Source: Comamonas halotolerans
Lineage (GTDB): Bacteria; Pseudomonadota; Gammaproteobacteria; Burkholderiales; Burkholderiaceae_C
Direction of reading: 5' to 3'
DNA length: 64,000 nt
Assembly (NCBI RefSeq): GCF_030162935.1
Contig: NZ_JASAUZ010000023.1
Location: forward strand, 124,001-188,000
The first letter of the stretch is position 1. Each line of letters starts with the position of its first letter. The notes under the pieces are model-generated. The model was not told where the DNA came from. It did no database searches and worked only from the letters and a program-made list of their open reading frames with translations. A program made the position numbers and the translations under genes. This document shows, piece after piece, positions 33,155 through 63,028 of the stretch.

Positions 33155-33162
33155 TGTATACA
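33155..33162. promoter_or_regulatory. Candidate purine-regulon operator upstream of xdhA (TGTATACA)
   Basis: The palindromic octamer lies about 80 bases upstream of the xdhA start. The same octamer or its TGTATGCA variant lies upstream of five other transcription units in the window. The half-sites GT..AC fit the binding style of FCD-type GntR repressors. Confidence 0.6.
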
Positions 33163-33241
33163 GATTGCAGCCTATAGATCGACACCTACATGGACACCGA
33201 CTTTATTGCTGTAAACGCATGAACTGCATATGGAAGTCTAT

Positions 33242-34822
33242 ATGCCATCGCCAACTCCGAGTGGCTTAATCACCCAAATACCGCCAGATCGCAAGCTTAT
33301 GTCCTCACGACCTCTCCATTTTTTGCGCCGCGGTCAGCCCGTGACGCTGCACGACGTTCCCCCGGACCGCACCCTGCTGGAGGTGCTGCGCGAAGACTTG
33401 CATTGCACCGGCACCAAAGAAGGCTGTGGCGAGGGTGACTGCGGCGCCTGTACCGTGGTGCTTGGCGAGCGCGTATCCGATGCCGATGGACAGGAACAGC
33501 TGAGCTACAAAGCCATCAACAGTTGTATTCGCTTGGCGCATTCCGTCGAGGGCATGGCTTTGTGGACAGTGGAAGATTTGACCCAGGACCCTGATATCCA
33601 GCTTCCAGCAGGCAAAGATCTCCACCCTGTGCAAGAAGCCCTGGTGCAATGCCATGGCACACAATGCGGTTTCTGCACACCCGGTTTTGTCATGAGCATG
33701 TTCGGCATGTATCAAAACCATGACCAGGGTGCCAGGCTTGACCGCTCAGGTGCACAAGAAGCGCTGTCGGGCAATCTGTGCCGCTGCACGGGTTATCGCC
33801 CTATTCTGGATGCTGCCCAGCAGATGGCATTTTTACCTCCGGCCACCGTCAATGCACCCGCAGTGATGCAAAAGCTCAAGCAACTCGAACAGCAAGCTCA
33901 AGCCCATCACGAGGCAACAATGGGGCAGACCGCACCCAGCTACCAACGCCCCGGCAGCATGCGTGAGTTGCTGCAAATCCGGGCAGCCTATCCGCGCGCA
34001 CAAGTGGTGGCAGGTTGCACCGATGTTGGGCTGTGGGTCACCAAGCAGCACCGAAGATTCGACATGGTGCTGGATGTGACAGGCGCAGAGGAGCTGAAAA
34101 CCATCCAACGTTCTGAAAATTACCTGCACATAGGTGCCGCAGCCACTTTGCATGAGGCTTTCGCAGCACTCAAAAGCCACTGGCCCCAATTGCACAAATT
34201 TGCAGCGCGCTTTGCTGGCCTGCCCGTACGCAACAGTGGAACGCTTGGTGGAAATGTGGCCAATGGCTCTCCCATCGGGGACTCCATGCCACTGCTGATT
34301 GCCTTAAATGCCCAGGTGGTACTGGCCAGCGTGCGCGGAGAGCGCAGCCTGCCCCTGGAGCAGCTTTACACAGGCTACCGCCAGAACCTCATGGCCGCAG
34401 ACGAACTGGTCACACGCATTGACGTTCCTGTGCCCAACACCGATGAATCCACACCATATTTGCGTGCTTACAAAATCAGCAAGCGCCAGGATGACGACAT
34501 CTCCGCCGTGTGTCTGGTCATCCATATCCATGTGAAAGACAAGCTGATCTCCCAGGCCAGCATTGGTGCAGGCGGCGTGGCAGCCACCCCTGCACGTGCC
34601 AGGCAGACTGAAGAAGCCTTGATCGGTCAGCCCTGGTGCGAAGACTCGCTACAAGCCACAGCAAAAGTTTTGCAAGCAGAATTCAACCCTATCTCCGATA
34701 TGCGCGCCAGCAGCGATTACCGCAAGCATGTGCTGGGCAGTTTGATGCAGCGCTTTTGGCTGGAAAGCCAAGGGCTCGCCTGCACATCCCTTGAAAACAT
34801 TCGCGTGGAGGTGGCCGCATGA
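33242..34822 (+). CDS. xdhA: Xanthine dehydrogenase small subunit (2Fe-2S and FAD)
   Basis: The product (526 residues from the ATG at 33242, after GGAAG) has a ferredoxin-type domain with CTGTKEGCGEGDCGACTVVL. A second 2Fe-2S domain follows, with CGFCTPGFVMSMFG and NLCRCTGYRPI (residues about 130-190). Then comes an FAD-binding domain with GCTDVGLWVTKQ and GNVANGSPIGDSMP. An ATG at 33299 is an alternative start and matches many family members. Together with XdhB it oxidises hypoxanthine to xanthine and xanthine to urate. Its stop overlaps the start of xdhB by four bases. Confidence 0.95.
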   Translation: MPSPTPSGLITQIPPDRKLMSSRPLHFLRRGQPVTLHDVPPDRTLLEVLREDLHCTGTKEGCGEGDCGACTVVLGERVSDADGQEQLSYKAINSCIRLAHSVEGMALWTVEDLTQDPDIQLPAGKDLHPVQEALVQCHGTQCGFCTPGFVMSMFGMYQNHDQGARLDRSGAQEALSGNLCRCTGYRPILDAAQQMAFLPPATVNAPAVMQKLKQLEQQAQAHHEATMGQTAPSYQRPGSMRELLQIRAAYPRAQVVAGCTDVGLWVTKQHRRFDMVLDVTGAEELKTIQRSENYLHIGAAATLHEAFAALKSHWPQLHKFAARFAGLPVRNSGTLGGNVANGSPIGDSMPLLIALNAQVVLASVRGERSLPLEQLYTGYRQNLMAADELVTRIDVPVPNTDESTPYLRAYKISKRQDDDISAVCLVIHIHVKDKLISQASIGAGGVAATPARARQTEEALIGQPWCEDSLQATAKVLQAEFNPISDMRASSDYRKHVLGSLMQRFWLESQGLACTSLENIRVEVAA

Positions 34823-39140: not shown

Positions 39141-39220
39141 ACCCCACTATAGGCACGTGAACACACTCTTTCACACGGGTAGAACCCTTGCCAGACAGCG
39201 GCTGACAGCAGCCAAAAGCA

Positions 39221-39243
39221 AAAGAGGCCTTACGGCCTCTTTT
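39221..39243. terminator. Bidirectional terminator between crp-like and cyclase genes
   Basis: Perfect arms AAAGAGGCC/GGCCTCTTT around a TTAC loop with A- and T-runs on the two sides. It follows the leftward regulator gene that ends at 39264. Confidence 0.8.
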
Positions 39244-39263
39244 CTCCTCCCCGATGGATATCT

Positions 39264-39887: not shown

Positions 39888-39923
39888 AGTCCCAGACTTT
39901 GCCTGAGCCCATACCAGACTATG

Positions 39924-40077: not shown

Positions 40078-41379
40078 TTACTTGATCGCAGCGCCACTTT
40101 CAAACCATTGTTTGAAGGCTGCACGCTCTTCTTCATTGAGCGCATCAGGATTGCCAAACGGCATCTTGCGCAGCAGCACCACCTGTTGGTAAATCTGCTG
40201 GGCATGGGACTTGACCTCTTCGGCCGTATCGAACTTCACGTTCTTTTGCGCGATGGTGTTGGCGCTGTGACACACCACACAATGTTGCTGCATCACGGCA
40301 TGCAGTTTTTCATAGCTTCCTACAGTGCCTGTACTTGCACTGCCAGTAGCAGCGGACACTGCCGGTGCCACAGCTTTCGCTTCCTCGCCTTGCAACACCG
40401 ACTGTCCAACGGGCGCAATCACCGCCGGATTGACTGCTACTGCTGCTGGAGGCATCGGCTTGAGCCAGGCCAGCACACCCAGCAACACAACCATACCAAC
40501 GGCCGCATACTTCCAGGGGTGAGGATTTCGGCCCAGTTTGTAACCATGACGCATCACGAAGAACTGGCGAATGGCAGCTCCCGCAAACATCATCAAAATC
40601 AGTACCAGCCAATTCAGTTCATGTGAATGCAGCCAGCCATAGTGGTTGGACAGCATGGCAAACAGTACAGGCAGGGTGAAGTAGGTGTTGTGCACGCTAC
40701 GCTGCTTGCCGCGCTTGCCATGAATAGGGTCTACAGGCTCACCCGCCTTGATGGAGGCAACCACCTTCTTTTGGCCAGGAATGATCCAGAAGAACACGTT
40801 CGCGCTCATGGAAGTCGCCAACATTGCTCCAATCAGCAGAAATGCGGCTTGCCCCGGGAACAAATGGCAGGCAAGGTAAGAGGCAATACAGACCAGCACC
40901 AAAACCAGCGCGCCGACGATGCCGTCTCCCCCCTCTTTTTCACCAAAGATGCGACAGATTGCGTTGTACAGCAGCCAGAACACCACCAGAAAGGCCAGCG
41001 CCACCACAATGGCCATTTGACTGGACATGACCGGATTGGCTGGATTGACCAGGTAAATATTGGCATTCCAGAGATAGGACACTGTCAGCAGCGCAAATCC
41101 CGACAGCCATGTCGTGTAACTTTCCCAATAGAACCAGTGCAGGTGATCCGGCAGTTTGGGCGGTGAGACATTGAATTTGACAGGGTGGTAGAACCCCCCT
41201 CCGTGGACGGCCCACAATTCACCGCTGACGCCTTGTTTCTTGAGGTCTTCATCAACTGGTGGTGTCAGACTGCTGTCGAGAAATACAAAATAAAACGACG
41301 AGCCTACCCATGCGATGGCGGTAATGACATGCAGCCACCGCAACAGCAGGTTGGCCCAGTCGAGAAAATAGCTTTCCAT
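40078..41379 (-). CDS. puuD: Membrane urate hydroxylase with C-terminal cytochrome c domain
   Basis: The 433-residue protein has about eight membrane helices (residues 10-315), with the PuuD-type N-terminus LLRWLHVITAIAWVGSSFYFVFLD. A C-terminal periplasmic domain has haem c site CVVCH (near residue 364) and a second ligand region with KMPFGNPDAL. PuuD turns urate into 5-hydroxyisourate, passing electrons to the respiratory chain instead of making hydrogen peroxide. The product is taken by HIU hydrolase encoded at 43638. A purine-regulon site lies about 140 bases upstream of its start. Confidence 0.92.
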   Translation of the reverse strand: MESYFLDWANLLLRWLHVITAIAWVGSSFYFVFLDSSLTPPVDEDLKKQGVSGELWAVHGGGFYHPVKFNVSPPKLPDHLHWFYWESYTTWLSGFALLTVSYLWNANIYLVNPANPVMSSQMAIVVALAFLVVFWLLYNAICRIFGEKEGGDGIVGALVLVLVCIASYLACHLFPGQAAFLLIGAMLATSMSANVFFWIIPGQKKVVASIKAGEPVDPIHGKRGKQRSVHNTYFTLPVLFAMLSNHYGWLHSHELNWLVLILMMFAGAAIRQFFVMRHGYKLGRNPHPWKYAAVGMVVLLGVLAWLKPMPPAAVAVNPAVIAPVGQSVLQGEEAKAVAPAVSAATGSASTGTVGSYEKLHAVMQQHCVVCHSANTIAQKNVKFDTAEEVKSHAQQIYQQVVLLRKMPFGNPDALNEEERAAFKQWFESGAAIK

Positions 41380-41517
41380 AGCTCTTCACTCCGGCAGTAT
41401 GGTGCTGCCTAGGATCAATCCTGCTCACCACTGCGGGCGCTCTGAGCAGAAGAAGGGGTCGCGCACCTGGGATACGAGCATCCTTATGGGCACCGCTGCG
41501 ACCTGTCTTTGCCGAAA

Positions 41518-41556
41518 GTGTATGCATTTTTTGTCGACAATTTTGAAAAAATGCAT
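41518..41556. promoter_or_regulatory. Operator cluster upstream of puuD
   Basis: TGTATGCA at 41519-41526 is followed by a TTTTTTG tract. An 11-base inverted repeat ATGCATTTTTT (41522-41532) / AAAAAATGCAT (41546-41556) encloses the palindrome TTGTCGACAA (41531-41540). This is the densest symmetric element in the purine region. Confidence 0.6.
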
Positions 41557-41582
41557 GTTCCTAGGACAACTACCAACCCGCG

Positions 41583-42407
41583 TCAGATGATTGCAAGCTG
41601 CTTGGCTCGCAATTGCAATAACTGTGCCGCCACAGCGATGGCAATCACTTCCGGCTCTTTGCCTGGAACCTCTGTCATTCCTATTGGACAGGTGATGTGG
41701 GCGACCTCATCTTCGGCAAACCCGCGTTCCGCCAATCTTCTCTGGAAAACCGCCCATTTGGTCGCACTACCAATCAAGCCCACAAATGGCAGATCCCCCT
41801 GCATGCGCTGGCGGCGAAGGCAGGCACAGACAATGTCCAGATCCTCGGCATGACTAAAGCTCATGATCAACACCAGCGAATGTGCAGCCAGGCCGCGCAC
41901 CGCATCATGAACGGGTTCGGAATGTTCGCATCGCACATGTGCAGGCGGTTCGGCAGGGAGCATCTCCTCGCGACTGTCCACCCACTGAACATCAAAGGAC
42001 AAGGGCTGTAAAACACGTACCAGAGCATGACCCACATGGCCAGCGCCAAACAGGGCTACAGGTACTTTCACGGGCTGCAAGCGCTTCAGCACAGCTTCCA
42101 CCGTCGCTTGCGTCACTGCGCACAGACGGATCTCCACCACGCCCCCGCAGCACTGGCCCAAAGAAGGCCCTAACGCAAGGCGGTGTATGCGAGCCTGCCC
42201 TTCCAGGCCTTGTTGCAGCCATGCACGTGCAAGCCGCAATGCCTCCCACTCCAGATGGCCACCACCAATCGTGCCAATCAATGCACAAGGCTGCACCGCC
42301 ATCCACGCACCTGGACCGCGTGGTGCCGACCCTTGCACCGACACCACTTCGACCAGACACACCAGGCCTTGTGCGACGGCTGTCATCAGTCGCTGTCTAT
42401 CGTTCAC
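41583..42407 (-). CDS. xdhC: Xanthine dehydrogenase accessory protein XdhC
   Basis: The 274-residue protein has the XdhC N-terminal domain (GSAPRGPGAWMAVQ...GTIGGGHLEWEALRLA) and the C-terminal Rossmann-like domain (PVALFGAGHVGHALV). XdhC binds molybdenum cofactor, adds sulfur to it and passes it to XdhB. I choose the GTG start at 42407 because AAAAGGTGA lies at good spacing. It ends just before the puuD promoter region, on the same strand. Confidence 0.92.
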   Translation of the reverse strand: MNDRQRLMTAVAQGLVCLVEVVSVQGSAPRGPGAWMAVQPCALIGTIGGGHLEWEALRLARAWLQQGLEGQARIHRLALGPSLGQCCGGVVEIRLCAVTQATVEAVLKRLQPVKVPVALFGAGHVGHALVRVLQPLSFDVQWVDSREEMLPAEPPAHVRCEHSEPVHDAVRGLAAHSLVLIMSFSHAEDLDIVCACLRRQRMQGDLPFVGLIGSATKWAVFQRRLAERGFAEDEVAHITCPIGMTEVPGKEPEVIAIAVAAQLLQLRAKQLAII

Positions 42408-42497
42408 CCAATCACCTTTTTTCTTACACCGAAGCCCGCAAACCAAGCACAAGTCTTGCCACTTCTACATCCGCCGCAATCCGGATAAGCTTGCACC

Positions 42498-42986
42498 ATG
42501 AGTGAAAAGTCTGTTCCCACATCTTGCCCACACCCTAAGCGCCATTGGCTGTGGGGTGGAATGGCTGCAGCGGTAGCTGCCCTTTTGGCTGCCTGTGGCA
42601 TCACGCCCTCAAGCCCTCCACCATCCTCCAGCGGCTCCTCCAGCGCCACCAATCCCCGCTCATACCGCCAGGATGCAGCGCGACATTTGTATGCGAAAAA
42701 TGCCTCCCGTATTTACAAAGGTAAGCTGCCGCCCCTGCTGTACGCAATAGGTACATTGGAAGTGAACCTGGATCGCAAGGGGCAGGTGCGCAGCTTCAAC
42801 TGGATGCGTGCGCCACGCCACGCACCAGAAGTGATCCGAGAAATCGAGCGCACCGTGCGTGCAGCCGCCCCCTTTCCTGTTGCGAGCAGACTCGGTTATG
42901 TCACCTACACCGACACCTGGTTGTGGGACAAATCTGGAAAATTCCAGCTCGACACTTTGACAGAAGGCCAGCGTGACGGAGATTGA
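42498..42986 (+). CDS. Lipoprotein with TonB C-terminal-like domain
   Basis: The 162-residue protein has a signal segment ending LAAC (Cys at 33), a Ser/Pro linker and a domain reading YAIGTLEVNLDRKGQVRSFNWMRAP followed by APEVIREIERTVRAAAPFP. That pattern resembles the TonB C-terminal or energy-transducer fold. It is likely attached to a membrane from the periplasmic side. Its 3' end overlaps the next gene. Function unknown. Confidence 0.65.
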   Translation: MSEKSVPTSCPHPKRHWLWGGMAAAVAALLAACGITPSSPPPSSSGSSSATNPRSYRQDAARHLYAKNASRIYKGKLPPLLYAIGTLEVNLDRKGQVRSFNWMRAPRHAPEVIREIERTVRAAAPFPVASRLGYVTYTDTWLWDKSGKFQLDTLTEGQRDGD

Positions 42987-43506
42987 TTCCAACGCCCTGC
43001 CTCAGGCACACATACGTGCGTTGCAAGCTAGTGATGTTGCCGCCTTTCAAAACCTGCGCCTGATGGCACTGCACCAACATCCGCAGGCTTTTTTCACCTC
43101 GCCTGAAGAGCAGGCGGCCATGCCTTTATCCGCTGTTGCCCACAGCATTGAGCCGGGAGCCGAACAGTTTGTCCTGGGTGCCTTTTGCGCAGACCAGCTC
43201 GTTGGCACTATGGGTCTGCAACGCCAGCGCCCCCGAAAATTGGCCCACAAAGCCGAGATTTGGGCTGTCTACGTTCACCCTGATCAACGCACCCAAGGCC
43301 TTGCACAAGCCTTGTTGCGCTCCACCTTGGAGCGCGCACGCACCATGCCAGGGCTAACTCAGGTGAAATTGGGCGTGGCCAGCATCAATCACGCGGCCAT
43401 CGCGCTGTACCAGCAATTCGGTTTTGTACGCTATGGGGTAGAGCCGCATTGTCTGCTGATTGACGGCACTTATTACGACGAAGACTGGATGCAGCTCACC
43501 CTCTAG
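42973..43506 (+). CDS. GNAT-family N-acetyltransferase
   Basis: The 177-residue protein (GTG start at 42973) has GNAT features: AEIWAVYVHPDQRTQGLAQALL with the acetyl-CoA loop, then VKLGVASINHAAIALYQQFGFVRYG. It overlaps the preceding gene by 14 bases in another frame. Substrate unknown. Confidence 0.88.
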   Translation: MTEIDSNALPQAHIRALQASDVAAFQNLRLMALHQHPQAFFTSPEEQAAMPLSAVAHSIEPGAEQFVLGAFCADQLVGTMGLQRQRPRKLAHKAEIWAVYVHPDQRTQGLAQALLRSTLERARTMPGLTQVKLGVASINHAAIALYQQFGFVRYGVEPHCLLIDGTYYDEDWMQLTL

Positions 43507-43637
43507 GCTCACGGCCATTCAGCTGAGACTAGGCGCCCCACACATACGAGAAGAGGCGCACTTCGCAAAAGCCCACCAGCGCCAGCATCGGAAGCACTCA
43601 CTGCCGAGCTTCGCAGGGCAGAGCGAAGCCATTGAAC

Positions 43638-43988
43638 TCAGGAACCTCTATAGGTGGAATAACTCCAAGGGCTGACCAGCAACGGCACATGGTAATGCTG
43701 GTCTGCATGAGCTACACCAAAGTCCAGACTCACCACATTCAGAAAATTGGGTTCGGGAAGTTGCACGCCTTTTGCTTTGAAGTAGGCTGCAACATCAAAG
43801 GACAAGCGGTATGACCCCACTTTAAGACTGTTGTTGTCGAAAAGAGGGGCGTCCGTGCGGCCATCGTGGTTTAGGGTCAGATCTTTGACCAGGGTGGTCT
43901 TGTCGCCGTCGACAGCAAACAATTTCACCGCCATGCCAGCTGCCGGGCAGCCATTCATGGTGTCTAGAACGTGGGTACTCAAGCCCAT
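43638..43988 (-). CDS. hiuH: 5-Hydroxyisourate hydrolase
   Basis: The 116-residue protein is a transthyretin-like HIU hydrolase: it starts MGLSTHVLDTMNGCPAAGM, has the middle segment NHDGRTDAPL and ends in the signature YRGS. It converts 5-hydroxyisourate to OHCU, after PuuD. The ATG at 43988 follows AAGGAG. It is divergent from the GntR gene, with the TGTATACA site between them. Confidence 0.95.
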   Translation of the reverse strand: MGLSTHVLDTMNGCPAAGMAVKLFAVDGDKTTLVKDLTLNHDGRTDAPLFDNNSLKVGSYRLSFDVAAYFKAKGVQLPEPNFLNVVSLDFGVAHADQHYHVPLLVSPWSYSTYRGS

Positions 43989-44042
43989 GGGGTAACTCCT
44001 TAATTTGCTGCAGCTGCCTCGCAACCGCTTGTTCACCAAAAG

Positions 44043-44057
44043 TGTATACAATTTTTG
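44043..44057. promoter_or_regulatory. Candidate purine-regulon operator between hiuH and gntR
   Basis: TGTATACAATTTTTG lies about 55 bases from the hiuH start and about 14-20 bases before the GntR start. The extended TTTTTG tail is shared with the sites upstream of puuD and the NCS2 permease. Position fits autoregulation of GntR. Confidence 0.65.
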
Positions 44058-44070
44058 CTTAAACGCATCT

Positions 44071-44760
44071 ATGATGATCCCTATGGAAACATCCTCCACC
44101 AGTGCCATTGCCGACGCTCTGACTCGCGCCATCGTCGAGCACAAGCTGCTGCCCGGAACCAAGCTGGCAGAGCAAAAGCTCGCCGATCATTTTGGCGTTT
44201 CTCGCACGCTGGTCAGGCAAGCTTTGTTCCAGCTTTCGCAAAATCGGCTGGTCACTCTCGCACCTGCCCGTGGTGCTTTTGTTGCCACGCCTTCCGTAGA
44301 GGAAGCCAAACAGGTCTTCGCTGTGCGCCGCATGCTGGAAACCGAAATGACCCGCGCCTTTGTGCGTCAAGTCACGGCCAAGCAGATCAAGAGCCTGAGA
44401 AACCACATCGCCGCTGAAAAAAAGGCCATGGACCGCAACGATGTGGGCCAGCGCACCGAATTGCTGGGTGACTTCCACGTGGTCATGGCCGAGTTGATGG
44501 GCAATCAGGTGCTGGCACAGCTGCTGGGCGATCTGATATCGCGCTGCGCCCTCATTACGCTGATGTACCAGAGCACCAGCGCTGCCGAACACTCACACGA
44601 AGAGCACGAAGCCATCGTGGCCGCCTTGGCCAACAAGGACGAAGCAACCGCCGTACGCCTGATGCAAGACCATCTACAGCATGTGGAAGAAGGCCTGACC
44701 TTTGACCGAGATCTACCGACCAATGATTTGTCCATGGCGCTGTCCAGCGTCAGTTTCTAA
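44071..44760 (+). CDS. GntR-family (FCD) regulator of the purine operon
   Basis: About 229 residues from the ATG at 44071 (44083 is also possible). The N-terminal winged HTH reads LLPGTKLAEQKLADHFGVSRTLVRQALFQL; a C-terminal helical FCD ligand domain follows, with metal-site HEEHEAI. It is followed 30 bases later by puuE, so it begins the allantoin operon, and is divergent from hiuH. It resembles HpxS-type regulators of purine catabolism. Binding to TGTATRCA is inferred. Confidence 0.85.
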   Translation: MMIPMETSSTSAIADALTRAIVEHKLLPGTKLAEQKLADHFGVSRTLVRQALFQLSQNRLVTLAPARGAFVATPSVEEAKQVFAVRRMLETEMTRAFVRQVTAKQIKSLRNHIAAEKKAMDRNDVGQRTELLGDFHVVMAELMGNQVLAQLLGDLISRCALITLMYQSTSAAEHSHEEHEAIVAALANKDEATAVRLMQDHLQHVEEGLTFDRDLPTNDLSMALSSVSF

Positions 44761-44790: not shown

Positions 44791-45750
44791 ATGACCTACA
44801 ACGCTTGCGCTCCCTACCCCCGTGACCTAATTGGCTATGGCCGCCAAACGCCCCACCCAGAGTGGCCAGGCCAAGCGCGTGTTGCTGTGCAGTTTGTGTT
44901 GAACTACGAAGAAGGCGGAGAAAACTGCGTACTGCATGGTGACCCTGGCAGTGAACAGTTTTTGTCTGAAATGTTCAACCCTGCTGCCTATCCTGAGCGC
45001 CATATGAGCATGGAAGGCATCTATGAATACGGTTCGCGCTCTGGCGTGTGGCGCATCCTGCGCGAATTTGAAAAGCGCGGCCTGCCGCTGACCGTGTTTG
45101 GCGTGGCCACGGCCTTGCAAAGGCACCGCGAAGTCGCGCAAGCTTTCCACGAGCTGGGCCACGAAGTGGCTTGCCATGGCCTGAAATGGATTCACTATCA
45201 AGGCGTGCCCGAAGAGGTTGAGCGTGCGCACATGGCTCAGTGCATGGAGATCTTTGGAGAGCTGTATGGACATGACGGTGATCATGGCCTGGGTTGGTAC
45301 ACCGGACGCGACAGCCCCAATACCCACCGCCTCGTGGCCGATGATGGCCGCTTCACCTACGACAGCGACTACTACGGAGATGATCTGCCGTTCTGGATGA
45401 CAGTTGGCAAGTCCGATGGCAGCCAGCACCAGCAACTGATCGTGCCCTACACCCTGGATTGCAACGACATGCGCTTTGCGCTGCCCCAGGGATACTCGCA
45501 CGCTGATCCATTCTTCCAGTACCTCAAAGACACGTTTGACGCCCTGTATGCCGAAGGTGCTGCCGATGGCGACAACGCCCCCAAGATGATGAGCATTGGC
45601 ATGCACTGCCGTCTGCTGGGCCGCCCTGGCCGCATCACCGCACTGCAGCGTTTTCTGGACCACATTCAGCAGCACGACCAGGTGTGGGTGGCACGCCGCA
45701 TTGATATTGCACGCCACTGGGTCCAACGCTTTCCTGCCCCTGCTCTGTGA
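44791..45750 (+). CDS. puuE: Cofactor-free allantoinase PuuE
   Basis: The 319-residue protein belongs to the polysaccharide-deacetylase-like allantoinases. Features are YPRDLIGYGRQTPHPEWPG, the central NYEEGGEN segment, EVACHGLKWIHYQ and GWYTGRDSPNTHRLV. It opens the allantoin ring to allantoate and differs from the zinc amidohydrolase AllB. It precedes the fused OHCU decarboxylase/allantoate amidohydrolase gene in the same operon. Confidence 0.93.
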   Translation: MTYNACAPYPRDLIGYGRQTPHPEWPGQARVAVQFVLNYEEGGENCVLHGDPGSEQFLSEMFNPAAYPERHMSMEGIYEYGSRSGVWRILREFEKRGLPLTVFGVATALQRHREVAQAFHELGHEVACHGLKWIHYQGVPEEVERAHMAQCMEIFGELYGHDGDHGLGWYTGRDSPNTHRLVADDGRFTYDSDYYGDDLPFWMTVGKSDGSQHQQLIVPYTLDCNDMRFALPQGYSHADPFFQYLKDTFDALYAEGAADGDNAPKMMSIGMHCRLLGRPGRITALQRFLDHIQQHDQVWVARRIDIARHWVQRFPAPAL

Positions 45751-45828: not shown

Positions 45829-47598
45829 ATGGCCCTGACCCTGGAACAACTCAACGCGGCAGACACTGCCACAGCCGTGCAACTGCTCGATGGCTTGTAT
45901 GAGCATTCGCCATGGATTGCCGAGCAAGCGCTGACACAGCGCCCATTCAAATCACTGGCCCACCTCAAATACGCCATGGTCCAGGTGCTGGAAAAAGCCG
46001 GCGTGCAGCCCCAGCTGGATCTGATCCGCGCCCACCCTGAGCTTGCAGGCAAGGCCATGGTGGCCAAAATACTAACCGCAGAATCCACCAATGAGCAGAA
46101 CAAGGCCGGCCTGACCAACTGCACGCCCGAAGAGTTCGCGCAGATTCAGCAACTCAATGCAGACTACAACGCACGCTTTGGCTTCCCATTCATTCTTGCG
46201 GTGCGCGGCCCTCGTGGCACCGGCTTGCTCAAGCAGGAAATCATCGCCACATTTGCACGCCGCCTGAACAACCACCCCGATTTCGAGCGCGCCGAGGCAA
46301 TCCGTAACATCCACCGCATTGCGGAGATTCGTCTCAACGACAAGTTCGGCTACGAGCCAACTCTGGGCAACGACGTCTGGGACTGGCAGGAAAAACTGGC
46401 CCAGCACAGTGAACCGGGCTATGCAGAAAAAGGCCAGCTCACCGTCACCTACCTGACCGATGCGCACCGTGCCTGCGCACAGCGCATCAGCCACTGGATG
46501 CGTGACTGCGGTTTTGACGAGGTGGAAGTGGATGCGGTGGGCAACGTCGTGGGTCGCTACCACCCCGCCATCGAAGGCGCCAAATACCTGCTGACCGGCA
46601 GCCACTACGATACCGTGCGCAACGGTGGCAAATACGATGGTCGCCTGGGCATCTTTGTGCCCATGGCCTGCGTGCGAGAGCTGCACCGCCAGGGCAAGCG
46701 CCTGCCTTTTGGCATCGAAGTCGTAGGTTTTGCCGAAGAAGAAGGCCAGCGCTACAAGGCCACATTCCTCGGATCCGGTGCCTTGATTGGCGACTTCAGG
46801 CCCGAATGGCTGGACCAGAAGGATGCCGACGGCATCACCATGCGCGAGGCCATGCAGCATGCCGGTCTGTGCATTGACGACATCCCCAAGCTCCGCCGCG
46901 ATGCTGCCCAGTACCTGGGCTTTATCGAAGTGCACATCGAGCAAGGCCCTGTGCTCAATGAACTGGATATTCCACTGGGTGTGGTCACCTCCATCAATGG
47001 CGGAGTGCGTTATGTCTGCGAAATGATCGGCACAGCCAGCCACGCAGGCACCACGCCCATGAATCGCCGCCGCGATGCCGCGCTGGGCGTTGCAGAGCTA
47101 GCCCTGTATATGGAGCAGCGCGCAGCACAAGATGGCGACAGCGTAGCGACTATCGGCATGCTGCAAGTGCCCAATGGCTCCATCAACGTTGTCCCTGGCA
47201 GGTGTGCATTCAGCATGGACATGCGCGCGCCCACCGATCCCCAGCGCGACGCGATGGTGGCCGACGTACTGGCCAAGCTGGAAGAAATTGCCCGGCGCCG
47301 CTGCCTGCAGACCAAGCTGGAACTGGCCATGAAGGCCGCAGCTGCACCCAGCGCACCGGCCCTGCAGGCACTCTGGGAGAAAGCCGTGCAAGCCTTGGGC
47401 GTTCCTGTTTACCGCATGCCTAGCGGCGCAGGCCACGACGCCATGAAACTGCACGAAATCATGCCCCAGGCCATGCTGTTCACGCGAGGTCTGAACGGTG
47501 GCATCAGCCACAACCCTCTGGAATCCACCACCAGCGACGACATGCAACTGGCCGTTGATGCGTTCAGCCATGTGCTGCAACAACTGGCCACCGAATAA
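45829..47598 (+). CDS. Fusion: OHCU decarboxylase and allantoate amidohydrolase
   Basis: The 589-residue protein joins two enzymes. Residues 1-165 form OHCU decarboxylase: catalytic H69 in RAHPELAG and the substrate loop FPFILAVRGP (119-128). Residues about 185-589 form an M20 allantoate amidohydrolase: zinc ligands H259 in TGSHYDT and D270 in KYDGRLG, EEEGQRY near 305, HIEQGP near 372 and SGAGHDA near 529. The order is OHCU -> S-allantoin, then (after PuuE) allantoate -> ureidoglycine with CO2 and ammonia release. The frame is intact across the junction. It follows puuE by 78 bases. Confidence 0.93.
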   Translation: MALTLEQLNAADTATAVQLLDGLYEHSPWIAEQALTQRPFKSLAHLKYAMVQVLEKAGVQPQLDLIRAHPELAGKAMVAKILTAESTNEQNKAGLTNCTPEEFAQIQQLNADYNARFGFPFILAVRGPRGTGLLKQEIIATFARRLNNHPDFERAEAIRNIHRIAEIRLNDKFGYEPTLGNDVWDWQEKLAQHSEPGYAEKGQLTVTYLTDAHRACAQRISHWMRDCGFDEVEVDAVGNVVGRYHPAIEGAKYLLTGSHYDTVRNGGKYDGRLGIFVPMACVRELHRQGKRLPFGIEVVGFAEEEGQRYKATFLGSGALIGDFRPEWLDQKDADGITMREAMQHAGLCIDDIPKLRRDAAQYLGFIEVHIEQGPVLNELDIPLGVVTSINGGVRYVCEMIGTASHAGTTPMNRRRDAALGVAELALYMEQRAAQDGDSVATIGMLQVPNGSINVVPGRCAFSMDMRAPTDPQRDAMVADVLAKLEEIARRRCLQTKLELAMKAAAAPSAPALQALWEKAVQALGVPVYRMPSGAGHDAMKLHEIMPQAMLFTRGLNGGISHNPLESTTSDDMQLAVDAFSHVLQQLATE

Positions 47599-47623
47599 CA
47601 AGCGACAAGAAGAGACAACCACC

Positions 47624-48901: not shown

Positions 48902-48934
48902 GCTAAAGTCAATTCGCTTCAGTTTCTTTTTGTT

Positions 48935-48967
48935 GCCCTTGTTGCTCACCCGACAAGGGCTTTTTTT
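48935..48967 (+). terminator. Intrinsic terminator ending the allantoin operon
   Basis: GCCCTTGT/ACAAGGGC stem with a run of seven T, 35 bases after the M20 gene stop. Confidence 0.9.
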
Positions 48968-49318
48968 CGCCTTGTGGATCCAGCACCTGACATGGTCTTC
49001 CATTTGATATACACCATGCAGTCTTGATTGGTCGCTATGGATATTGAAATTTGAAGCGAATACCTACGGTTTGAGCCTGTTCCTGGCAACGCGCTTCCGG
49101 CCCTTGCCCAATCGGGTTGCGAGCGACAGTCAGCAAACCACCACCTACCGCTTGATAACGCACCTAAGCAGTGCGACTTACCGCCGTTTTGGTGCAATCC
49201 TCTGGTTAACCCCTGTTCACCTTACGCCACATGGCCCACGTAATCCCCCGTGACGATGGCACCAATCTTGCAGACAGTTCTTGCATACAAGATTTGAATA
49301 TCTAACTGCGAGGCTTCC
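48968..49318. promoter_or_regulatory. Intergenic region upstream of the symporter, with an operator-like site
   Basis: No gene is supportable in these 351 bases. TTGCATACAA (49281-49290), whose complement contains TGTATGCA, lies about 30 bases before the symporter start, inside CTTGCATACAAG. This is the same site family as upstream of xdhA, puuD and the NCS2 permease. Confidence 0.55.
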
Positions 49319-50620
49319 ATGCGTTTTTTGAAATCACTTTTTGGACAAGTGCTGCTGGCTCTGGTGGCGGGTGTGGTGATCGGACTGCTCTGGCCAGAGA
49401 CCGGCATTGCCCTCAAACCACTGGGCGATGGGTTTATCAAGCTCATCAAGATGCTGATTCCACTGATCGTGTTCTGCGTTGTTGTACATGGCATTGCCGG
49501 CACTGGTGACCTCAAACGTGTGGGACGTGTGGGTGTCAAAGCCCTGGTGTATTTCGAGGTGGTCACCACCATTGCGCTCGCATTGGGACTCGTATTGGCG
49601 GTCTGGTTCCAGCCAGGAGTCGGCATGAATGTGGATCCGAAGGCGCTGGATGCTTCTGCAATGAGTGCCTACACCAGCACTGCTGAAAAGCTCGCTGGCG
49701 GTGGCACTGCCGAGTTCTTGCTCAAACTCATCCCCACCACCGCTGTCAGCGCGTTTGCCACAGGGGACGTGCTGCAGGTACTGCTGTTTTCGATTGTCTT
49801 TGGCTGCGCTCTGGCAATGCTGGGAGAGCGTGGACGCAAAGTGACGGGTTTGATCGAAGACCTGTCACTGGTGCTGTTCAAAACCATGGGCATCATCATC
49901 AAGCTGGCTCCCCTGGGTGTGCTGGGTGCTATCGCCTTTACCGTAGGCAAATACGGTGTTGGCTCACTCAAGCAGTTGGGCATGCTGGTGGTGCTGTTTT
50001 ATGCAGCCGTCGTGGTGTTTGTGGTGGTTGTGCTGGGGTTGATCCTGCGCTTTTCCGGCTTCAGCCTGTTCAAGCTTCTGCGCTATCTGCGCGAAGAGCT
50101 GGCCGTGGTGTTCGCCACCACTTCGTCGGACAGCGTTCTGCCGCAAATCATGGCCAAGCTCAAACACATGGGCGTGCGTGATTCCACAGTGGGTCTGGTC
50201 ATCCCCACGGGCTATTCCTTCAACCTGGATGCATTCTCCATCTACATCACCATGGCGGCAGTGTTTATTGCTCAAGCCACCAACACCCCGATTTCCATGG
50301 TGGATCTTTTGACCATTCTGGCCATTTCACTGCTCACGTCCAAAGGTGCACACGGCGTCCCCGGGTCAGCCATCGTGGTTCTGGCCGCCACGTTGCAGGC
50401 GGTTCCCGCCATTCCAGCCATCGGCTTGGTACTGGTACTGTCGGTGGATTGGTTCATGGGCATTGCCCGTGCGCTGGGTAACCTGATTGGCAACTGCGTA
50501 GCCACAGTGGCGATCGCAGCCTGGGAAGGCGACATCGACAAAGACCGCGCCCACAAAGTGCTCAATGGCGAAGATGTCCCCGCTCTGGAACAACCCGAAG
50601 AACGCGCTTGGCAACGCTAA
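49319..50620 (+). CDS. Dicarboxylate/amino acid:cation symporter (DctA/GltP family)
   Basis: The 433-residue membrane protein has eight helices and two re-entrant loops with family motifs. These are FATTSSDSVLPQIM (serine-rich loop), GLVIPTGYSFNLDAFSIYITMA and SKGAHGVPGSAIVVL. It imports C4-dicarboxylates or acidic amino acids with protons or sodium. Its location between the allantoin genes and a GntR gene, and the operator-like site upstream, suggest a purine-breakdown acid as substrate. Confidence 0.9.
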   Translation: MRFLKSLFGQVLLALVAGVVIGLLWPETGIALKPLGDGFIKLIKMLIPLIVFCVVVHGIAGTGDLKRVGRVGVKALVYFEVVTTIALALGLVLAVWFQPGVGMNVDPKALDASAMSAYTSTAEKLAGGGTAEFLLKLIPTTAVSAFATGDVLQVLLFSIVFGCALAMLGERGRKVTGLIEDLSLVLFKTMGIIIKLAPLGVLGAIAFTVGKYGVGSLKQLGMLVVLFYAAVVVFVVVVLGLILRFSGFSLFKLLRYLREELAVVFATTSSDSVLPQIMAKLKHMGVRDSTVGLVIPTGYSFNLDAFSIYITMAAVFIAQATNTPISMVDLLTILAISLLTSKGAHGVPGSAIVVLAATLQAVPAIPAIGLVLVLSVDWFMGIARALGNLIGNCVATVAIAAWEGDIDKDRAHKVLNGEDVPALEQPEERAWQR

Positions 50621-50635: not shown

Positions 50636-51316
50636 ATGCAGCACCCCACGCAATCCATCGCCCAGCAAGTCGTCCAATCCATTTTGGCGCGCAAACTGCA
50701 GCCCGGAGAACGTTTGGGTGAGCAAGCCTTGTCCGATCTTTTCGGTGTCAGCCGAACTTTGGTACGCGAAGCCCTGATGCAACTTCAAGCACGCGGCTTT
50801 GTGCAAGTGCATCCACGTCGCGGATGGTTTGTCGTGGAACCCTCAGTCACCGAGGCGCGCGATGCTTTTGCTGCACGCCGCGTGATCGAAACCGGCTTGC
50901 TGCAAGAACAAGGCCGCCCTCTGCAGCAAGTCACTCGCCAATTGCGACAGCACCTGGCACAAGAACAAGCCGCCCTGGAAGGAGCAGACCCGGCCACGCG
51001 GGCGTTTTTGCTGGCTGACTTCCATGTGTGTCTTGCACAAAGCATGGGGCATGAAGCACTGAGCCTGATCCTGCGCGACCTGACTGCGCGCACCACGCTG
51101 GCAGCGACGCTCTACCAGTCCCAGCAGGATGCGAATCTGTCATGCCGCCAGCATGAAGGTATTGTCCAGGCACTGGAAGCTGGCGATACGGCATTGGCTG
51201 CCCAGTTGTTGCGAGAGCATCTGGGCGAAGTCGAGCAGTCACTCAGTCCAAGCAAGGCCCAGCCGCACGACCCTCTGCGTGAGCGCCTGCAGCCAATCGA
51301 TCTGCCCTCGATATAA
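50636..51316 (+). CDS. Second GntR-family (FCD) regulator
   Basis: The 226-residue protein has an N-terminal winged HTH (LQPGERLGEQALSDLFGVSRTLVREAL) and an FCD domain with the metal-site CRQHEGIVQAL. It is similar in layout to the regulator at 44071, so the two are probably paralogues. It begins 15 bases after the symporter stop. Which GntR binds TGTATRCA is not decided by the sequence. Confidence 0.85.
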   Translation: MQHPTQSIAQQVVQSILARKLQPGERLGEQALSDLFGVSRTLVREALMQLQARGFVQVHPRRGWFVVEPSVTEARDAFAARRVIETGLLQEQGRPLQQVTRQLRQHLAQEQAALEGADPATRAFLLADFHVCLAQSMGHEALSLILRDLTARTTLAATLYQSQQDANLSCRQHEGIVQALEAGDTALAAQLLREHLGEVEQSLSPSKAQPHDPLRERLQPIDLPSI

Positions 51317-51519
51317 GCACTGCATCCACGCCCCTTACTGGCATTCTTTTTGCTCATTCATTGCGCGACTGAGCAACTTTCTTTTCACATTACAAAAAAG
51401 CTTTTTGTGTTTTAAAAGCGTAATGCTGAGATAACCCTTCATGTGCGGCTAACAACGGGCAAACCCTAGTGAAATGCGGCTCAAACGAGGGTTTTGGATA
51501 AATTTTCTCTTCACTGCTT

Positions 51520-51540
51520 TGTATACACTTTTTGTATGGA
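51520..51540. promoter_or_regulatory. Candidate purine-regulon operator upstream of the NCS2 permease
   Basis: TGTATACACTTTTTG, with a second TTTGTATGG repeat directly following, lies about 75 bases before the permease start. The region 51317-51601 holds no gene and reads AT-rich. Confidence 0.65.
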
Positions 51541-55636: not shown

Positions 55637-55910
55637 CATGGCCGCTTCACTTTTCAAAGCAGTCTACGCTTGTGCATCAATGGATTGATTGCAGCCTCAG
55701 CATCCAACCATTTTCATTCGGCACGACATACCCTTTTTACTGCAGCGCCGCCAATCCGCTCCTGTACATACGTTTTCGTGCCCGCGCTGAACCGAAGTGC
55801 GCCACTGCGCCATCAGCACCGCTCCTGCGAAAGCCCGCGCTCATTGGGGTAAAGTAACCGCAACTTCTGCCCGCAGGCGGCCCTGCCCATCCTGCTATAA
55901 ACCCCACCGA
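55637..55910. other. Intergenic region before the tetronate cluster
   Basis: No gene, repeat or clear promoter motif is seen here. GC content rises sharply beyond it. Confidence 0.4.
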
Positions 55911-56678
55911 ATGTCAGTGTCCTTTGAACCCGTCAAGGCTGGTACGTCGCTTGCCGATCAAGTGGCCCAATCCCTCGAATCCAGCATTCGCCAGGGTCAG
56001 TTGCGCCCTGGCGACCGCCTGCCCACCGAGGCGGCCATGGTCACGCAATTTGGAGTCAGCCGTACCGTGGTGCGCGAGGCGATCTCGCGCCTGAAATCCA
56101 GCGGCCTGGTGGAATCCAAGCAAGGCAGCGGCGTCTATGTGCAGGCGGCCCGTGTCGAGCCGCTGGATCTAGACAAGACCCAGGCCGCCTCACAAGAGGC
56201 CGTGATCCAGATCGTCGAAGTGCGCCGCGCACTGGAGGCCGAGGTGGCCGAGCTTGCCGCCGCGCGCCGCACCCCCGAGGACATCCACCGCATCCATGTG
56301 GCCGTGCAGGCCCTGGCCGATGCGGTGCAGCAGGGGCGCGACGGGGTGAGTGAGGACGTGGCCTTCCACCGCGCCATTGCCCAGGCCGCACGTAACCCGT
56401 TCCTGCTCAACACCCTGGACTATTTGTCCCAGATTCTTGCCGGTGCCACGCGCGTGACCCGGGCGAATGAAGCGCGGCGCACCGACTTCTCCACCGCCGT
56501 GACGCAGGAGCATGCTGGCATCGTGCAGGCCATCGAGGCCGGTGACCCCGCTGCGGCCCGCGCCGCCGCCACCGCGCACATGAACAACGCCATTGTCCGC
56601 ATCCGCCAGGCCGATCCTGCCTTCTGGGCAAAGGATGGCCGCCGCCTGGCCCAGGCCCTGCTGCCGGACACGCTGTAA
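55911..56678 (+). CDS. FadR-type GntR regulator of the tetronate cluster
   Basis: From the ATG at 55911 the protein has 255 residues: a winged HTH (LRPGDRLPTEAAMVTQFGVSRTVVREAI) and a C-terminal FCD domain with FHRAIAQAARNPF and QEHAGIVQAI. Its place at the head of the tetronate genes suggests it represses them until a tetronate is present. A TTGT-N6-ACAA site lies between it and the permease. Confidence 0.88.
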   Translation: MSVSFEPVKAGTSLADQVAQSLESSIRQGQLRPGDRLPTEAAMVTQFGVSRTVVREAISRLKSSGLVESKQGSGVYVQAARVEPLDLDKTQAASQEAVIQIVEVRRALEAEVAELAAARRTPEDIHRIHVAVQALADAVQQGRDGVSEDVAFHRAIAQAARNPFLLNTLDYLSQILAGATRVTRANEARRTDFSTAVTQEHAGIVQAIEAGDPAAARAAATAHMNNAIVRIRQADPAFWAKDGRRLAQALLPDTL

Positions 56679-58196: not shown

Positions 58197-58281
58197 TCCA
58201 GGCCTTGTCTTCTTCCACGCCGGGACTGCCCGGCGTTTGCGTTTGCTTCTGCAACATCCTCATTCGATTGGAAATTATCAA

Positions 58282-60467: not shown

Positions 60468-60482
60468 CCCTGAAGGCACCCC

Positions 60483-61175: not shown

Positions 61176-61235
61176 CCCCCATCCATCCCTGGCGTGCAGG
61201 CCCTGGCGCCCGCAGGCCGAACAAAGAGAGCAACC

Positions 61236-62036: not shown

Positions 62037-62176
62037 GGCTAAGGCGCTCCAGGCCGGGACTCGGCTGTCCTCCCACGCCAGGCTGGTACAGCGCCTGCCA
62101 CCGCCCGTGGTAGGTTGCTCCCCGCCTACGCTGCATGCGGGGATGCCTCATCACCACCGACATCACTTACCAATTC

Positions 62177-62210
62177 AAAAAGCCACTGGCCGCACGGCCC
62201 AGGGCTTTTT
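62177..62210. terminator. Bidirectional terminator after otnI
   Basis: AAAAAGCC and GGGCTTTTT arms with further pairing (CTGGCC/GGCCCAG) serve both the rightward otn operon and the leftward flavin reductase gene that ends at 62310. The rest of 62037-62309 shows no gene. Confidence 0.8.
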
Positions 62211-62309
62211 GCATCGCTGCTTCAGTGTGCGTAGCTAGCTGCTCGCTCTGGCCGGCTACGATTTCCAAGAAAAATCACATGCAAGCTGCGCGCAGCCAGT
62301 GCCAGCCGC

Positions 62310-62963
62310 TCAAATTTCATCGATGGCGGTGCTGACACTGCTGCCCTGCCACGCGGCTTTGCCTTCGTGCGCTTCTATGGCAAAGCGCTCCCTGCAGGTG
62401 ACATAAAAGCTTGCCCCAAACCTCCCTACTGGAAAGTAATCTTGCAGCTTGACGCGCCACTTCTCGGTGTCCACCAGCCCATCCCGTACAGCCAACCATT
62501 GCACGCGCCCGATAAAGACATAGCGGCTATCGGTTTCCATCAGCTCATGCAACACGCATTCAAAGGCCACAGGGGCTTCGGCTATGCGCGGCACTTGCAA
62601 TGTTTGGGAATCCACGGTGCTCAGGCCGGTATAGAGCAACTCGCTTTCAGTAACCGGCAGTTTGTCACCACAACGGTGCATGGCTGCAGCAATAGGCTCA
62701 TCCGCCAGATGCACTACGAACTCCCTGGTACGCAAGATATGGGCCGCAGTGTCTTTGAGCTGACCATCCTGCTGCTTATTCACGCTCAGCATCACCACCG
62801 GCGGATCTTCGCCGACCATGTTGAACATGCTGAAAGGGGCTGCATTGACTGTACCGTCCTCACCCAGCGTGGTGACCAGAGCGATCGGCCTGGGAACAAT
62901 CAGGCTGGCCATGAGCTTGTAACGCTCATAGGCACCGAGGGTGGAGAAATCGATTTCTGTCAT
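62310..62963 (-). CDS. Flavin reductase-like (FMN-binding split barrel) protein
   Basis: From the ATG at 62963 the protein has 217 residues and belongs to the flavin reductase-like domain family: YKLMASLIVPRPIALVTTLGEDG, NAAPFSMFNMVGEDPPVVMLSV, then RTREFVVHLADE. These proteins bind FMN and often serve oxygenases. It is divergent from the NMT1-type transporter gene, with TGTATGCA midway between the starts. Its role is not set; it could serve a monooxygenase outside the window. Confidence 0.85.
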   Translation of the reverse strand: MTEIDFSTLGAYERYKLMASLIVPRPIALVTTLGEDGTVNAAPFSMFNMVGEDPPVVMLSVNKQQDGQLKDTAAHILRTREFVVHLADEPIAAAMHRCGDKLPVTESELLYTGLSTVDSQTLQVPRIAEAPVAFECVLHELMETDSRYVFIGRVQWLAVRDGLVDTEKWRVKLQDYFPVGRFGASFYVTCRERFAIEAHEGKAAWQGSSVSTAIDEI

Positions 62964-63007
62964 TTCAAAGGTTCCGTCATTTTTTGAATGCTGCCGGTTC
63001 CGCAACT

Positions 63008-63028
63008 TGTATGCCAAGTGTGTATGCA
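63008..63028. promoter_or_regulatory. Candidate purine-regulon operator in the divergent reductase/NMT1 promoter
   Basis: TGTATGCC at 63008-63015 and TGTATGCA at 63021-63028 are direct repeats 13 bases apart, midway between starts at 62963 and 63087. They match the site family seen at the purine genes. Confidence 0.55.

What the first reader, a model, noticed from the sequence alone, without database searches (positions are those of the whole stretch)
33155..63028. A shared TGTATRCA operator marks an apparent purine regulon
Exact TGTATACA occurs three times in the window as far as I can find: 33155 (xdhA), 44043 (hiuH/gntR) and 51520 (NCS2 permease). All three are in promoter regions of purine genes. 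The variant TGTATGCA or its complement occurs at 41519 (puuD), 49282 (symporter) and 63021 (reductase/NMT1). Three sites extend to TGTATRCA-N-TTTTTG. Two FCD-type GntR regulators are encoded in the same region, and their known sites have GT..AC half-sites. The regulon would unite transporters, the urate pathway and an unassigned reductase/NMT1 pair.
Basis: partly seen in the sequence, partly recalled or inferred. Interest (0 to 1): 0.75.

Follow-up and report, generated by a model that had tools for sequence, protein, structure and literature searches.

The report
Purine-regulon operator with urate-oxidase leader RNA
The shared DNA word is a real, conserved switch site for genes that take up and break down urate, though only about half of the listed sites belong to it, and next to one of them the urate oxidase gene carries a conserved folded RNA leader of an apparently undescribed type.

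Summary
Sites at hiuH/gntR (44043), puuD (41519) and the NCS2 permease (51520) share one palindrome, conserved before the same genes (gntR 80/80 named loci, NCS2 22/22, puuD 32/42; xdhC 0/45, puuE 0/78), though NCS2 and puuD sites thin out in more distant genera. A model trained without this genome ranks these three places first genome-wide. Of 20 family genomes lacking this GntR, 4 have weak hits. Most likely GntR 44071 represses itself and the urate pathway. The dctA site (49282) belongs to a different operator that travels with dctA and the paralogous GntR 50636. The xdhA site (33155) was found in 0/20 relatives and is at background level; 63021 is not supported. Unexpected: between the puuD operator and the puuD start lies a pseudoknotted leader RNA (41418-41505, minus), found in 53/54 puuD loci and 14/18 more distant ones, with compensatory changes in all three helices and no acceptable Rfam match. 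It may be a new riboswitch class; ligand and function are untested.

The parts
44035..44058 (.). operator between hiuH and gntR1 (core TGTATACA 44043-44050)
   Evidence: 23.9 bits with a model trained without this genome, best in the genome; found at gntR1 in 20/20 relatives, 80/80 named loci and 20/20 more distant genomes
41511..41535 (-). operator upstream of puuD (core 41519-41526, TGCATACA in puuD direction)
   Evidence: 15.0 bits, third place genome-wide; 12/12 relatives, 32/42 named loci, 8/17 more distant loci
51518..51536 (+). operator upstream of the NCS2 permease (core 51520-51527)
   Evidence: 19.7 bits, second place genome-wide; 14/14 relatives, 17/19 with the second set, 22/22 named loci, but 1/11 more distant loci
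41418..41505 (-). puuD leader RNA: P1 41503-41498 with 41462-41457; pseudoknot 41496-41493 with 41436-41433; P3 41449-41443 with 41427-41421
   Evidence: 86.2 bits with R3, of which it is a training member; over 59 sequences 17 pairs, 98.8% of 994 cells paired, 10 pairs with two-sided changes; no acceptable Rfam match
44071..44760 (+). GntR1, FCD-type GntR, proposed repressor of this operator
   Evidence: Pfam GntR and FCD; the operator sits at its gene and is mostly absent where it is absent
43638..43988 (-). hiuH, 5-hydroxyisourate hydrolase (start chosen from the extent of orthologues)
   Evidence: TIGR02962 above cut-off on the longer ORF 43638-44162
44791..45750 (+). puuE, allantoinase
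   Evidence: TIGR03212 above cut-off
45829..47598 (+). OHCU decarboxylase / allantoate amidohydrolase fusion
   Evidence: NF010373 and TIGR03164 above cut-off
40078..41379 (-). puuD, membrane urate oxidase
   Evidence: Pfam Urate_ox_N, 415.7 bits
51602..53089 (+). NCS2 xanthine/urate-type permease
   Evidence: TIGR03173 above cut-off
33147..33166 (+). weak candidate site upstream of xdhA (core 33155-33162), doubtful
   Evidence: 10.0 bits; 0/20 other genomes
49274..49297 (+). different operator upstream of dctA (core 49282-49289)
   Evidence: 23.9 bits with model R2 trained without this genome, best in the genome; 4.0-5.5 bits with R1
49319..50620 (+). dctA, C4-dicarboxylate transporter
   Evidence: NF009587 above cut-off
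50636..51316 (+). GntR2, paralogous FCD-type GntR, proposed regulator of dctA
   Evidence: Pfam GntR and FCD; 42% identical to GntR1; near dctA in the 20 loci fetched for it
63021..63028 (+). TGTATGCA between the flavin reductase and an NMT1 gene; not supported as a member
   Evidence: 6.4 bits with R1

Best explanation
Two layers of control meet at the urate genes. (1) GntR1 (44071-44760), an FCD-type GntR, binds as a dimer to the A/T-armed palindrome around TGTATACA in the hiuH/gntR1 intergenic region, before puuD and before the NCS2 permease. It represses these units, including its own, until an intermediate of the pathway binds the FCD domain. Shown by computation: the sites, their conservation, and their tie to GntR1. 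Inferred: binding, repression and inducer. (2) The puuD messenger probably starts near the operator and carries a folded leader of about 88 nt (P1, P2, P3 and a pseudoknot) before the puuD start. Shown: the fold, by covariation. Inferred: that it tunes puuD translation, most likely as a metabolite-sensing RNA. The dctA site is a sister operator of the paralogue GntR2: similar core, different flanking bases.
For: Conservation with internal controls: gntR1 20/20, hiuH 12/12, puuD 12/12, NCS2 14/14, xdhC 0/12 in the regions of 20 relatives; 80/80, 58/58, 32/42, 22/22 against xdhC 0/45, puuE 0/78 and fusion gene 1/72 in 80 named loci, with random 60-nt stretches 60/4000 and 230-nt stretches 201/4000; gntR1 20/20 and hiuH 18/19 in more distant genomes. 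Genome scan with the target genome left out of training: the three purine places rank first. Absence control: of 20 family genomes without a GntR1 match (20 of 71 such), 4 have hits at E<=0.5, none above 14.6 bits; 21/21 genomes with GntR1 have hits, best 18-24 bits, but 20 of these 21 supplied the training sites. Two operators: alignment column 20 is T in 47/47 purine sites and G in 17/18 dctA sites; R1 and R2 each rank their own place first. The proteins share recognition-helix residues SRT-x-VR but differ in wing residues, A66/A69 in GntR1 against R or K 61 and W64 in GntR2. RNA: 26 invariant core columns in 37 leaders picked without any RNA pattern; 46 sequences, 99.4% of 782 cells paired, 15 two-sided cells, 0/500 shuffles; 14 further loci at E<0.001, directly before puuD; 59 sequences, 98.8% of 994 cells, 52 two-sided cells, slid controls at most 60.3%; 53/54 loci; in-frame stops in 43/53.
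Against: No binding, expression or ligand data. The puuD operator is missing in 10/42 named loci and 9/17 more distant ones; the NCS2 operator is missing in 2/19 and in 10/11 more distant loci, so only the hiuH/gntR1 site is constant. No sigma-70 consensus promoter was found at 41300-44200, so overlap with a promoter is unproven. Single-sequence folding of the leader is not unusual against shuffles (z from +0.58 to -2.42 in ten folds), and the minimum-energy fold of the full window leader lacks P3. In A4 the P1 5' strand and both pseudoknot strands were fixed by the pattern used to pick the sequences, so their invariance there says nothing; in A5 the pseudoknot has a two-sided change in 2 related sequences only. 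Four of 18 more distant family puuD loci and both alphaproteobacterial ones tested lack the RNA.
Confidence: 0.8

Rival explanations
1. One regulator reads all TGTATRCA sites, uniting xdhA, urate genes, dctA, permease and the reductase/NMT1 pair.
For: Shared core; dctA and GntR2 lie beside the purine genes here and in two fetched relatives (L071, L072); an NMT1-ABC-deaminase operon elsewhere in this genome has a 12.4-bit site and 1 of 11 orthologous promoters has a 12.6-bit site.
Against: dctA sites form their own class with G where the purine class has T; dctA-gntR2 also occurs far from the purine cluster with this class, for example in G018, G147, G219 and G289; xdhA 0/20; 63021 only 6.4 bits.
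Confidence: 0.1
2. GntR2, not GntR1, reads the purine operators, or both do so interchangeably.
For: Paralogues 42% identical with the same recognition-helix residues but one.
Against: The operator sits at gntR1 in all loci tested (20/20, 80/80, 20/20). In one search, 8 of the 20 relatives have no GntR2 match at E<=1e-45 (up to 9 candidates scored per genome) and in a ninth, G213, the only match is GntR1 itself; all keep the gntR1 site.
Confidence: 0.07
3. The bare 8-mer cluster is chance or a promoter-composition effect.
For: 18 copies genome-wide; the 12 copies outside the window that I looked at all overlap some ORF of at least 100 aa, although so do two of the three window copies.
Against: Conservation with flanks in dozens of genomes and clean negative controls.
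Confidence: 0.02
4. The puuD leader is a protein-binding or processing element, an attenuator, or a structural stabiliser of the mRNA rather than a metabolite sensor.
For: No ligand evidence; the leader lies between genes of one direction in many loci, where processing elements also occur.
Against: No terminator-like site was reported at the leader; of the 26 invariant core columns 16 lie outside P1 and P3, 7 of these in the pseudoknot, which resembles a ligand pocket; in the loci at hand it is tied to one gene.
Confidence: 0.4

Closest known systems
FadR/FCD-subfamily GntR regulators with GT-N2-AC operators (HpxS group named in Suvorova et al. 2015, PMC4494728; sections 10 and 17 and passages read)
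   Same: GntR plus FCD domains; A/T-rich palindrome with GT-AC spaced by 2 nt; site at its own gene
   Different: The paper's main text names HpxS once in that list and gives no regulon; whether HpxS is the orthologue of GntR1, and whether RegPrecise already lists this regulon, could not be checked
NMT1 motif = xanthine riboswitch (Yu and Breaker 2020, PMC7373994; abstract, section 5 and passages read)
   Same: Proteobacterial leader RNA tied to purine oxidation, present in this family (a Hydrogenophaga example); proposed control of translation start
   Different: NMT1 motif is a bulged hairpin and the genes listed in section 5 do not include puuD; the puuD leader is two hairpins joined by a pseudoknot, was found only before puuD in the loci at hand, and has no acceptable Rfam match
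PuuD cytochrome c urate oxidase loci (Doniselli et al. 2015, PMC4562309; passages read)
   Same: puuD grouped with purine-degradation genes
   Different: The words GntR and regulator do not occur in its main text
HpxR/HpxS of Klebsiella, HucR/PecS/MftR urate-responsive MarR proteins (recalled, no call)
   Same: Control of purine or urate genes by small-molecule-responsive regulators
   Different: Other gene sets or other protein families

Membership tests
FCD/FadR-subfamily GntR regulator with GT-N2-AC palindrome | N-terminal GntR winged helix and C-terminal FCD domain | tested here: met
   Pfam GntR 58.0 and FCD 84.6 bits, both above gathering
FCD/FadR-subfamily GntR regulator with GT-N2-AC palindrome | Palindromic A/T-armed site with GT-N2-AC at its own promoter | tested here: met
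   TGYATRC core: T11, G12, A14, T15 and C17 invariant in 47 aligned sites, GTATAC the commonest form; site at gntR1 in 80/80 loci
FCD/FadR-subfamily GntR regulator with GT-N2-AC palindrome | Binds the site and responds to a ligand | not testable with these tools
   needs bench work
HpxS orthologous group | Orthology to HpxS and same regulon | not tested
   No HpxS sequence or RegPrecise table at hand; HpxS only named in PMC4494728
NMT1 motif / xanthine riboswitch | Match to the Rfam family | tested here: not met
   No match at gathering or at E<=1 over 31-53.3 kb; on the leader alone only a 6.2-bit chance match to another family. That the NMT1 motif is in Rfam 15 is recalled
NMT1 motif / xanthine riboswitch | Bulged two-stem hairpin before dioxygenase, NMT1 or tauA-type genes | tested here: not met
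   Two hairpins plus pseudoknot before puuD
Riboswitch in general | Conserved covarying structure in a 5' leader of a metabolic gene | tested here: met
   that the stretch is transcribed as a 5' leader is inferred from position
Riboswitch in general | Ligand binding and ligand-dependent expression | not testable with these tools
   needs in-line probing and reporter fusions
Riboswitch in general | Recognisable expression platform | tested here: inconclusive
   A further hairpin before the ribosome-binding site folds in L226, but the pattern match (ending inside P3) ends 19-183 nt before the start codon and no alternative fold was tested for conservation

The most novel reading that the evidence does not exclude
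The puuD leader is a new riboswitch class that senses urate or a neighbouring metabolite (xanthine, 5-hydroxyisourate) and sets translation of the membrane urate oxidase in Comamonadaceae, downstream of a GntR repressor that controls the same transcript.
Probability: 0.42. Interest if true: 0.82.

Novelty: new variant of a known kind. Interest (0 to 1): 0.64.

Why it matters
It gives a testable operator and repressor for bacterial urate breakdown across a large environmental family, separates two paralogous repressors that share a core word but differ in flanks, and turns up a structured RNA of unknown ligand on a urate oxidase gene. A urate-specific RNA would be both a new riboswitch and a useful sensor.

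Tried and rejected
Rejected: one regulon for all six sites. Rejected: sigma-54 control as a theme shared by dctA, puuD and NCS2; a TGGCAC-N5-TTGCA match sits 25 nt before the dctA core in this window, but only 3 of 19 relatives have even a two-mismatch form at that place, and the window count of one-mismatch matches is not far from chance (20 found, 13.3 expected, 7/100 shuffles as high). Rejected: the leader as coding sequence (in-frame stops in 43/53, varying lengths). Rejected: known Rfam family.

Errors of mine that were caught: a supposed 433-aa gene at 47702-49003 (minus), used as a landmark, is an antisense shadow ORF; the plus-strand ORF 47498-48901 is an M20 ArgE/DapE-type hydrolase. 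In one search loci matched on the minus strand were read in the wrong orientation; one search replaced it. One search (R1 on 30 loci with default filters) found nothing, but it also missed the 33155 site itself and so is no evidence; one search repeated it on 22 of these loci without filters: the only upstream hit is 33155 itself, and the other hits (L092 at 11.0 bits, L090 at 8.0) lie downstream of the xdhA match start. One search looked at 21 xdhA loci of 20 other genomes; a second partial xdhA of G147 (L099) was left out.

Literature: ten searches. None held the five terms or the six together. each listed one paper (PMC1978522, PMC8305402), seen as listings only. Six phrases for a urate riboswitch or puuD motif gave none. 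The main texts of PMC11109978, PMC8632094, PMC7266159 and PMC6429828 were searched for urate, uric, xanthine, purine and some host names and only passages were read; no motif before a urate oxidase appeared in them. Supplements were not read, so an unnamed motif in a supplement is possible.

Rows left out before counts: duplicates L058 and L062 from A1 and L070 from A2 (47 of 49 and 18 of 19 sites); L139 (truncated) from the dctA count, in which L070 and L141 are the same locus. The 46 sequences of A4 are the distinct matches of a pattern that fixes the P1 5' strand and the pseudoknot strands.
Full report
What was checked. In the window the exact word is enriched (3 against 0.19), but in the whole 4.05-Mb genome there are 18 copies and 8 of the reversed word, so the 8-mer alone carries little. 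The flanks decide. Three sites have A/T arms that make a longer palindrome: 44043 (CAAAAGTGTATACAATTTTTG), 41519 and, on one side, 51520; 33155, 49282 and 63021 do not.

Genes. Family scans give xdhA, xdhB, xdhC, hiuH, allantoinase puuE, an OHCU decarboxylase/allantoate amidohydrolase fusion, a DctA-type transporter and an NCS2 permease, urate oxidase puuD, two FCD-type GntR proteins at 44071 (GntR1) and 50636 (GntR2), and a third at 55797. The nearest named relatives found are Comamonas avium and C. kerstersii (GntR1 92% identical; the tool warns that the genome's own record may be left out).

Conservation. Relatives of GntR1 occur in 228 of 299 sampled family genomes at E<=1e-30. I took 20 kb around 20 of the closest. 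A site with at most one mismatch is present at gntR1 in 20/20, hiuH 12/12, puuD 12/12 and NCS2 14/14, and before xdhC in 0/12. In 80 named loci it is at gntR1 80/80, hiuH 58/58, NCS2 22/22, puuD 32/42, against xdhC 0/45, puuE 0/78 and the fusion gene 1/72; random stretches gave 60/4000 (60 nt) and 201/4000 (230 nt). In 20 more distant genomes of the family it is within 220 nt of gntR1 in 20/20 and before hiuH in 18/19, but before puuD in only 8/17 and before NCS2 in only 1/11; there puuD and NCS2 often follow hiuH or puuD in one direction. So the hiuH/gntR1 site is the constant core of the regulon and the others are lineage-dependent.

Unbiased scan. A sequence model (R1) from 47 sites of relatives, none from this genome, was run on the whole genome. 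Its three best places are 44035 (23.9 bits), 51518 (19.7) and 41511 (15.0); the only other place up to E=10 is C23:355600 (12.4 bits), outside the window (150 of 586 first-look candidates were scored). That place precedes an NMT1-type binding protein, an ATPase, a permease, a TadA-like deaminase and UreD. In 21 genomes with GntR1, R1 hits at E<=0.5 occur in 21/21, but 20 of these gave the training sites; in regions of 20 more distant genomes not used in training R1 hits at E<=1 occur in 17/20. In 20 of the 71 sampled genomes without a GntR1 match, 4/20 have hits, none above 14.6 bits. Together these tie the operator to GntR1.

The dctA site is another operator. Of 22 testable dctA starts (one locus counted twice, L139 left out as truncated) 19 carry a site of the form CTACATTTCTTGYATRCAAGATTTG or its core CTTGCATACAAGA. 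At alignment column 20 it has G in 17/18, where the purine class has T in 47/47. Its model R2, again without this genome, ranks 49274 first (23.9 bits); the next place, 14.5 bits, precedes a TctC-type binding protein (the protein family of that gene is read from its sequence and its likeness to TctC hits, not scanned itself). GntR1 and GntR2 share the recognition-helix residues SRT-x-VR and differ in wing residues. Same centre, different periphery is what the GntR literature describes, with extra half-sites at 7-12 nt (PMC4494728). That GntR2 reads the dctA class is inferred from position and co-occurrence.

xdhA and 63021. xdhA has matches in all 21 genomes, but no site with up to one mismatch lies within 420 nt upstream in the 20 others (21 loci). 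Scored without filters over 22 xdhA loci, 33155 has 10.0 bits and no other locus has an upstream hit, while a stretch inside another xdhA gene reaches 11.0; among exact copies in this genome the best unrelated one has 9.2. So 33155 is at background level. The closest species could not be reached for xdhA. The 63021 site scores 6.4 bits. Its NMT1 gene is 65% identical to the NMT1 gene of C23:355600. Of 13 such NMT1 promoters, 10 have a sigma-54-like TGGCAY-N5-TTGCW element with at most one mismatch within 250 nt (from the window-wide rate about 0.03 would be expected per promoter), and 3 have a TGYATRCA site, of which two score 12.4-12.6 bits. So 63021 may be a decayed or nascent site at a nitrogen-type promoter; it is not a demonstrated member.

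The leader RNA. Reading the puuD promoters showed that the stretch between operator and start codon is strikingly conserved: in 37 leaders picked only by gene and operator, 26 core columns are invariant. It lies at 41418-41505, minus strand, with the form GGUCGC-AGCGG-[variable P2]-GCGRCC-linker-CUGCUCA-GAGCGCCCGCAGUGG-UGAGCAG. On 46 distinct sequences P1, P3 and a pseudoknot (GCGG with CCGC of the P3 loop) pair in 99.4% of 782 cells; no shuffle of 500 reached any of the five measures, and slid partners pair in at most 55.1%. These 46 were picked by a pattern that fixes the P1 5' strand and the pseudoknot strands, so there only P3 and the P1 3' strand were free. A covariance model R3 with P1 and P3 only found 14 more loci at E<0.001 among 23 sources not used in building, all directly before puuD. 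With them (59 sequences, from 60 sources; L276 gave none) 98.8% of 994 cells pair, 10 of 17 pairs show two-sided changes (7 of 7 in P3, 2 of 6 in P1, 1 of 4 in the pseudoknot, which the model did not contain), 52 cells in all, 0/500 shuffles, slid at most 60.3%. It occurs in 53 of 54 puuD loci, in 9 of them without the operator, and in 14 of 18 of the more distant set; the 4 without it (L307, L310, L318, L322) have puuD within about 70 nt of the preceding gene. Two alphaproteobacterial puuD loci lack it. Among the 78 and 54 sources the best matches that are not puuD leaders scored 21.4 and 17.1 bits; these sources are centred on purine loci, so use by other genes elsewhere is not excluded. Against it: single-sequence energies are not special.

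Is it known? Rfam 15 gives no match (only 6.2 bits to an unrelated family). The xanthine riboswitch (NMT1 motif) has another fold and other genes in the text I read. No paper in the library holds any of the six phrases searched for a urate riboswitch or puuD motif. Supplements and closed papers were not seen.

Mechanism. Most likely GntR1 keeps hiuH, puuE and the fusion gene, puuD and the permease off until a pathway intermediate releases it, with autoregulation at 44043. The puuD transcript then passes a second check by its leader, probably at translation, since no terminator-like site was reported there. The inducer and the RNA ligand are unknown; urate or a neighbour is my guess for the RNA. 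Confidence: conserved GntR1 operator 0.9, separate dctA operator 0.85, leader is a structured RNA 0.95, leader senses a metabolite about 0.55, urate or neighbour about 0.42.

Verdict. The operator part is a well-supported new member of a known kind (and may already be catalogued as HpxS); the combination with an undescribed structured leader on urate oxidase makes it a new variant worth testing.

Noticed in passing
63033-63048 (+) and C23:355600 region (L169, L197): Sigma-54-like elements before NMT1-type binding-protein genes in 10 of 13 promoters, some with a TGCACC...GGTGAACA dyad like an NtrC site (label recalled; sequences), suggesting nitrogen control of this purine-type ABC operon.
   Followed up: partly
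G000 C12:427256-427272 (L162): Second-best dctA-class site (14.5 bits) lies before what reads as a TctC-type binding protein, a possible second target of GntR2.
   Followed up: partly
49222-49300 and dctA promoters of relatives: About 35 nt upstream of the dctA operator many relatives keep a GGGNNTNNCCC-like palindrome; some have a second TGTCTACA/TTGTATTCA box.
   Followed up: no
47702-49003 (-): A 433-aa ORF that looks conserved is an antisense shadow of the M20-type hydrolase gene 47498-48901 (+).
   Followed up: yes
42498-42986 (+): A 162-aa predicted protein with a lipoprotein-like N-terminus (read from the sequence), present near hiuH in 11 of 20 fetched regions, without NCBIfam, Pfam or PDB match at the limits used.
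   Followed up: partly
55797-56678 (+): A third FCD-type GntR beside a GntP permease and a hydroxy-acid dehydrogenase / 2-oxo-tetronate isomerase cluster.
   Followed up: no
41380-41417 (-): Between P3 and the puuD start several relatives have a further short hairpin of changing sequence just before the ribosome-binding site.
   Followed up: partly
   Followed up: yes
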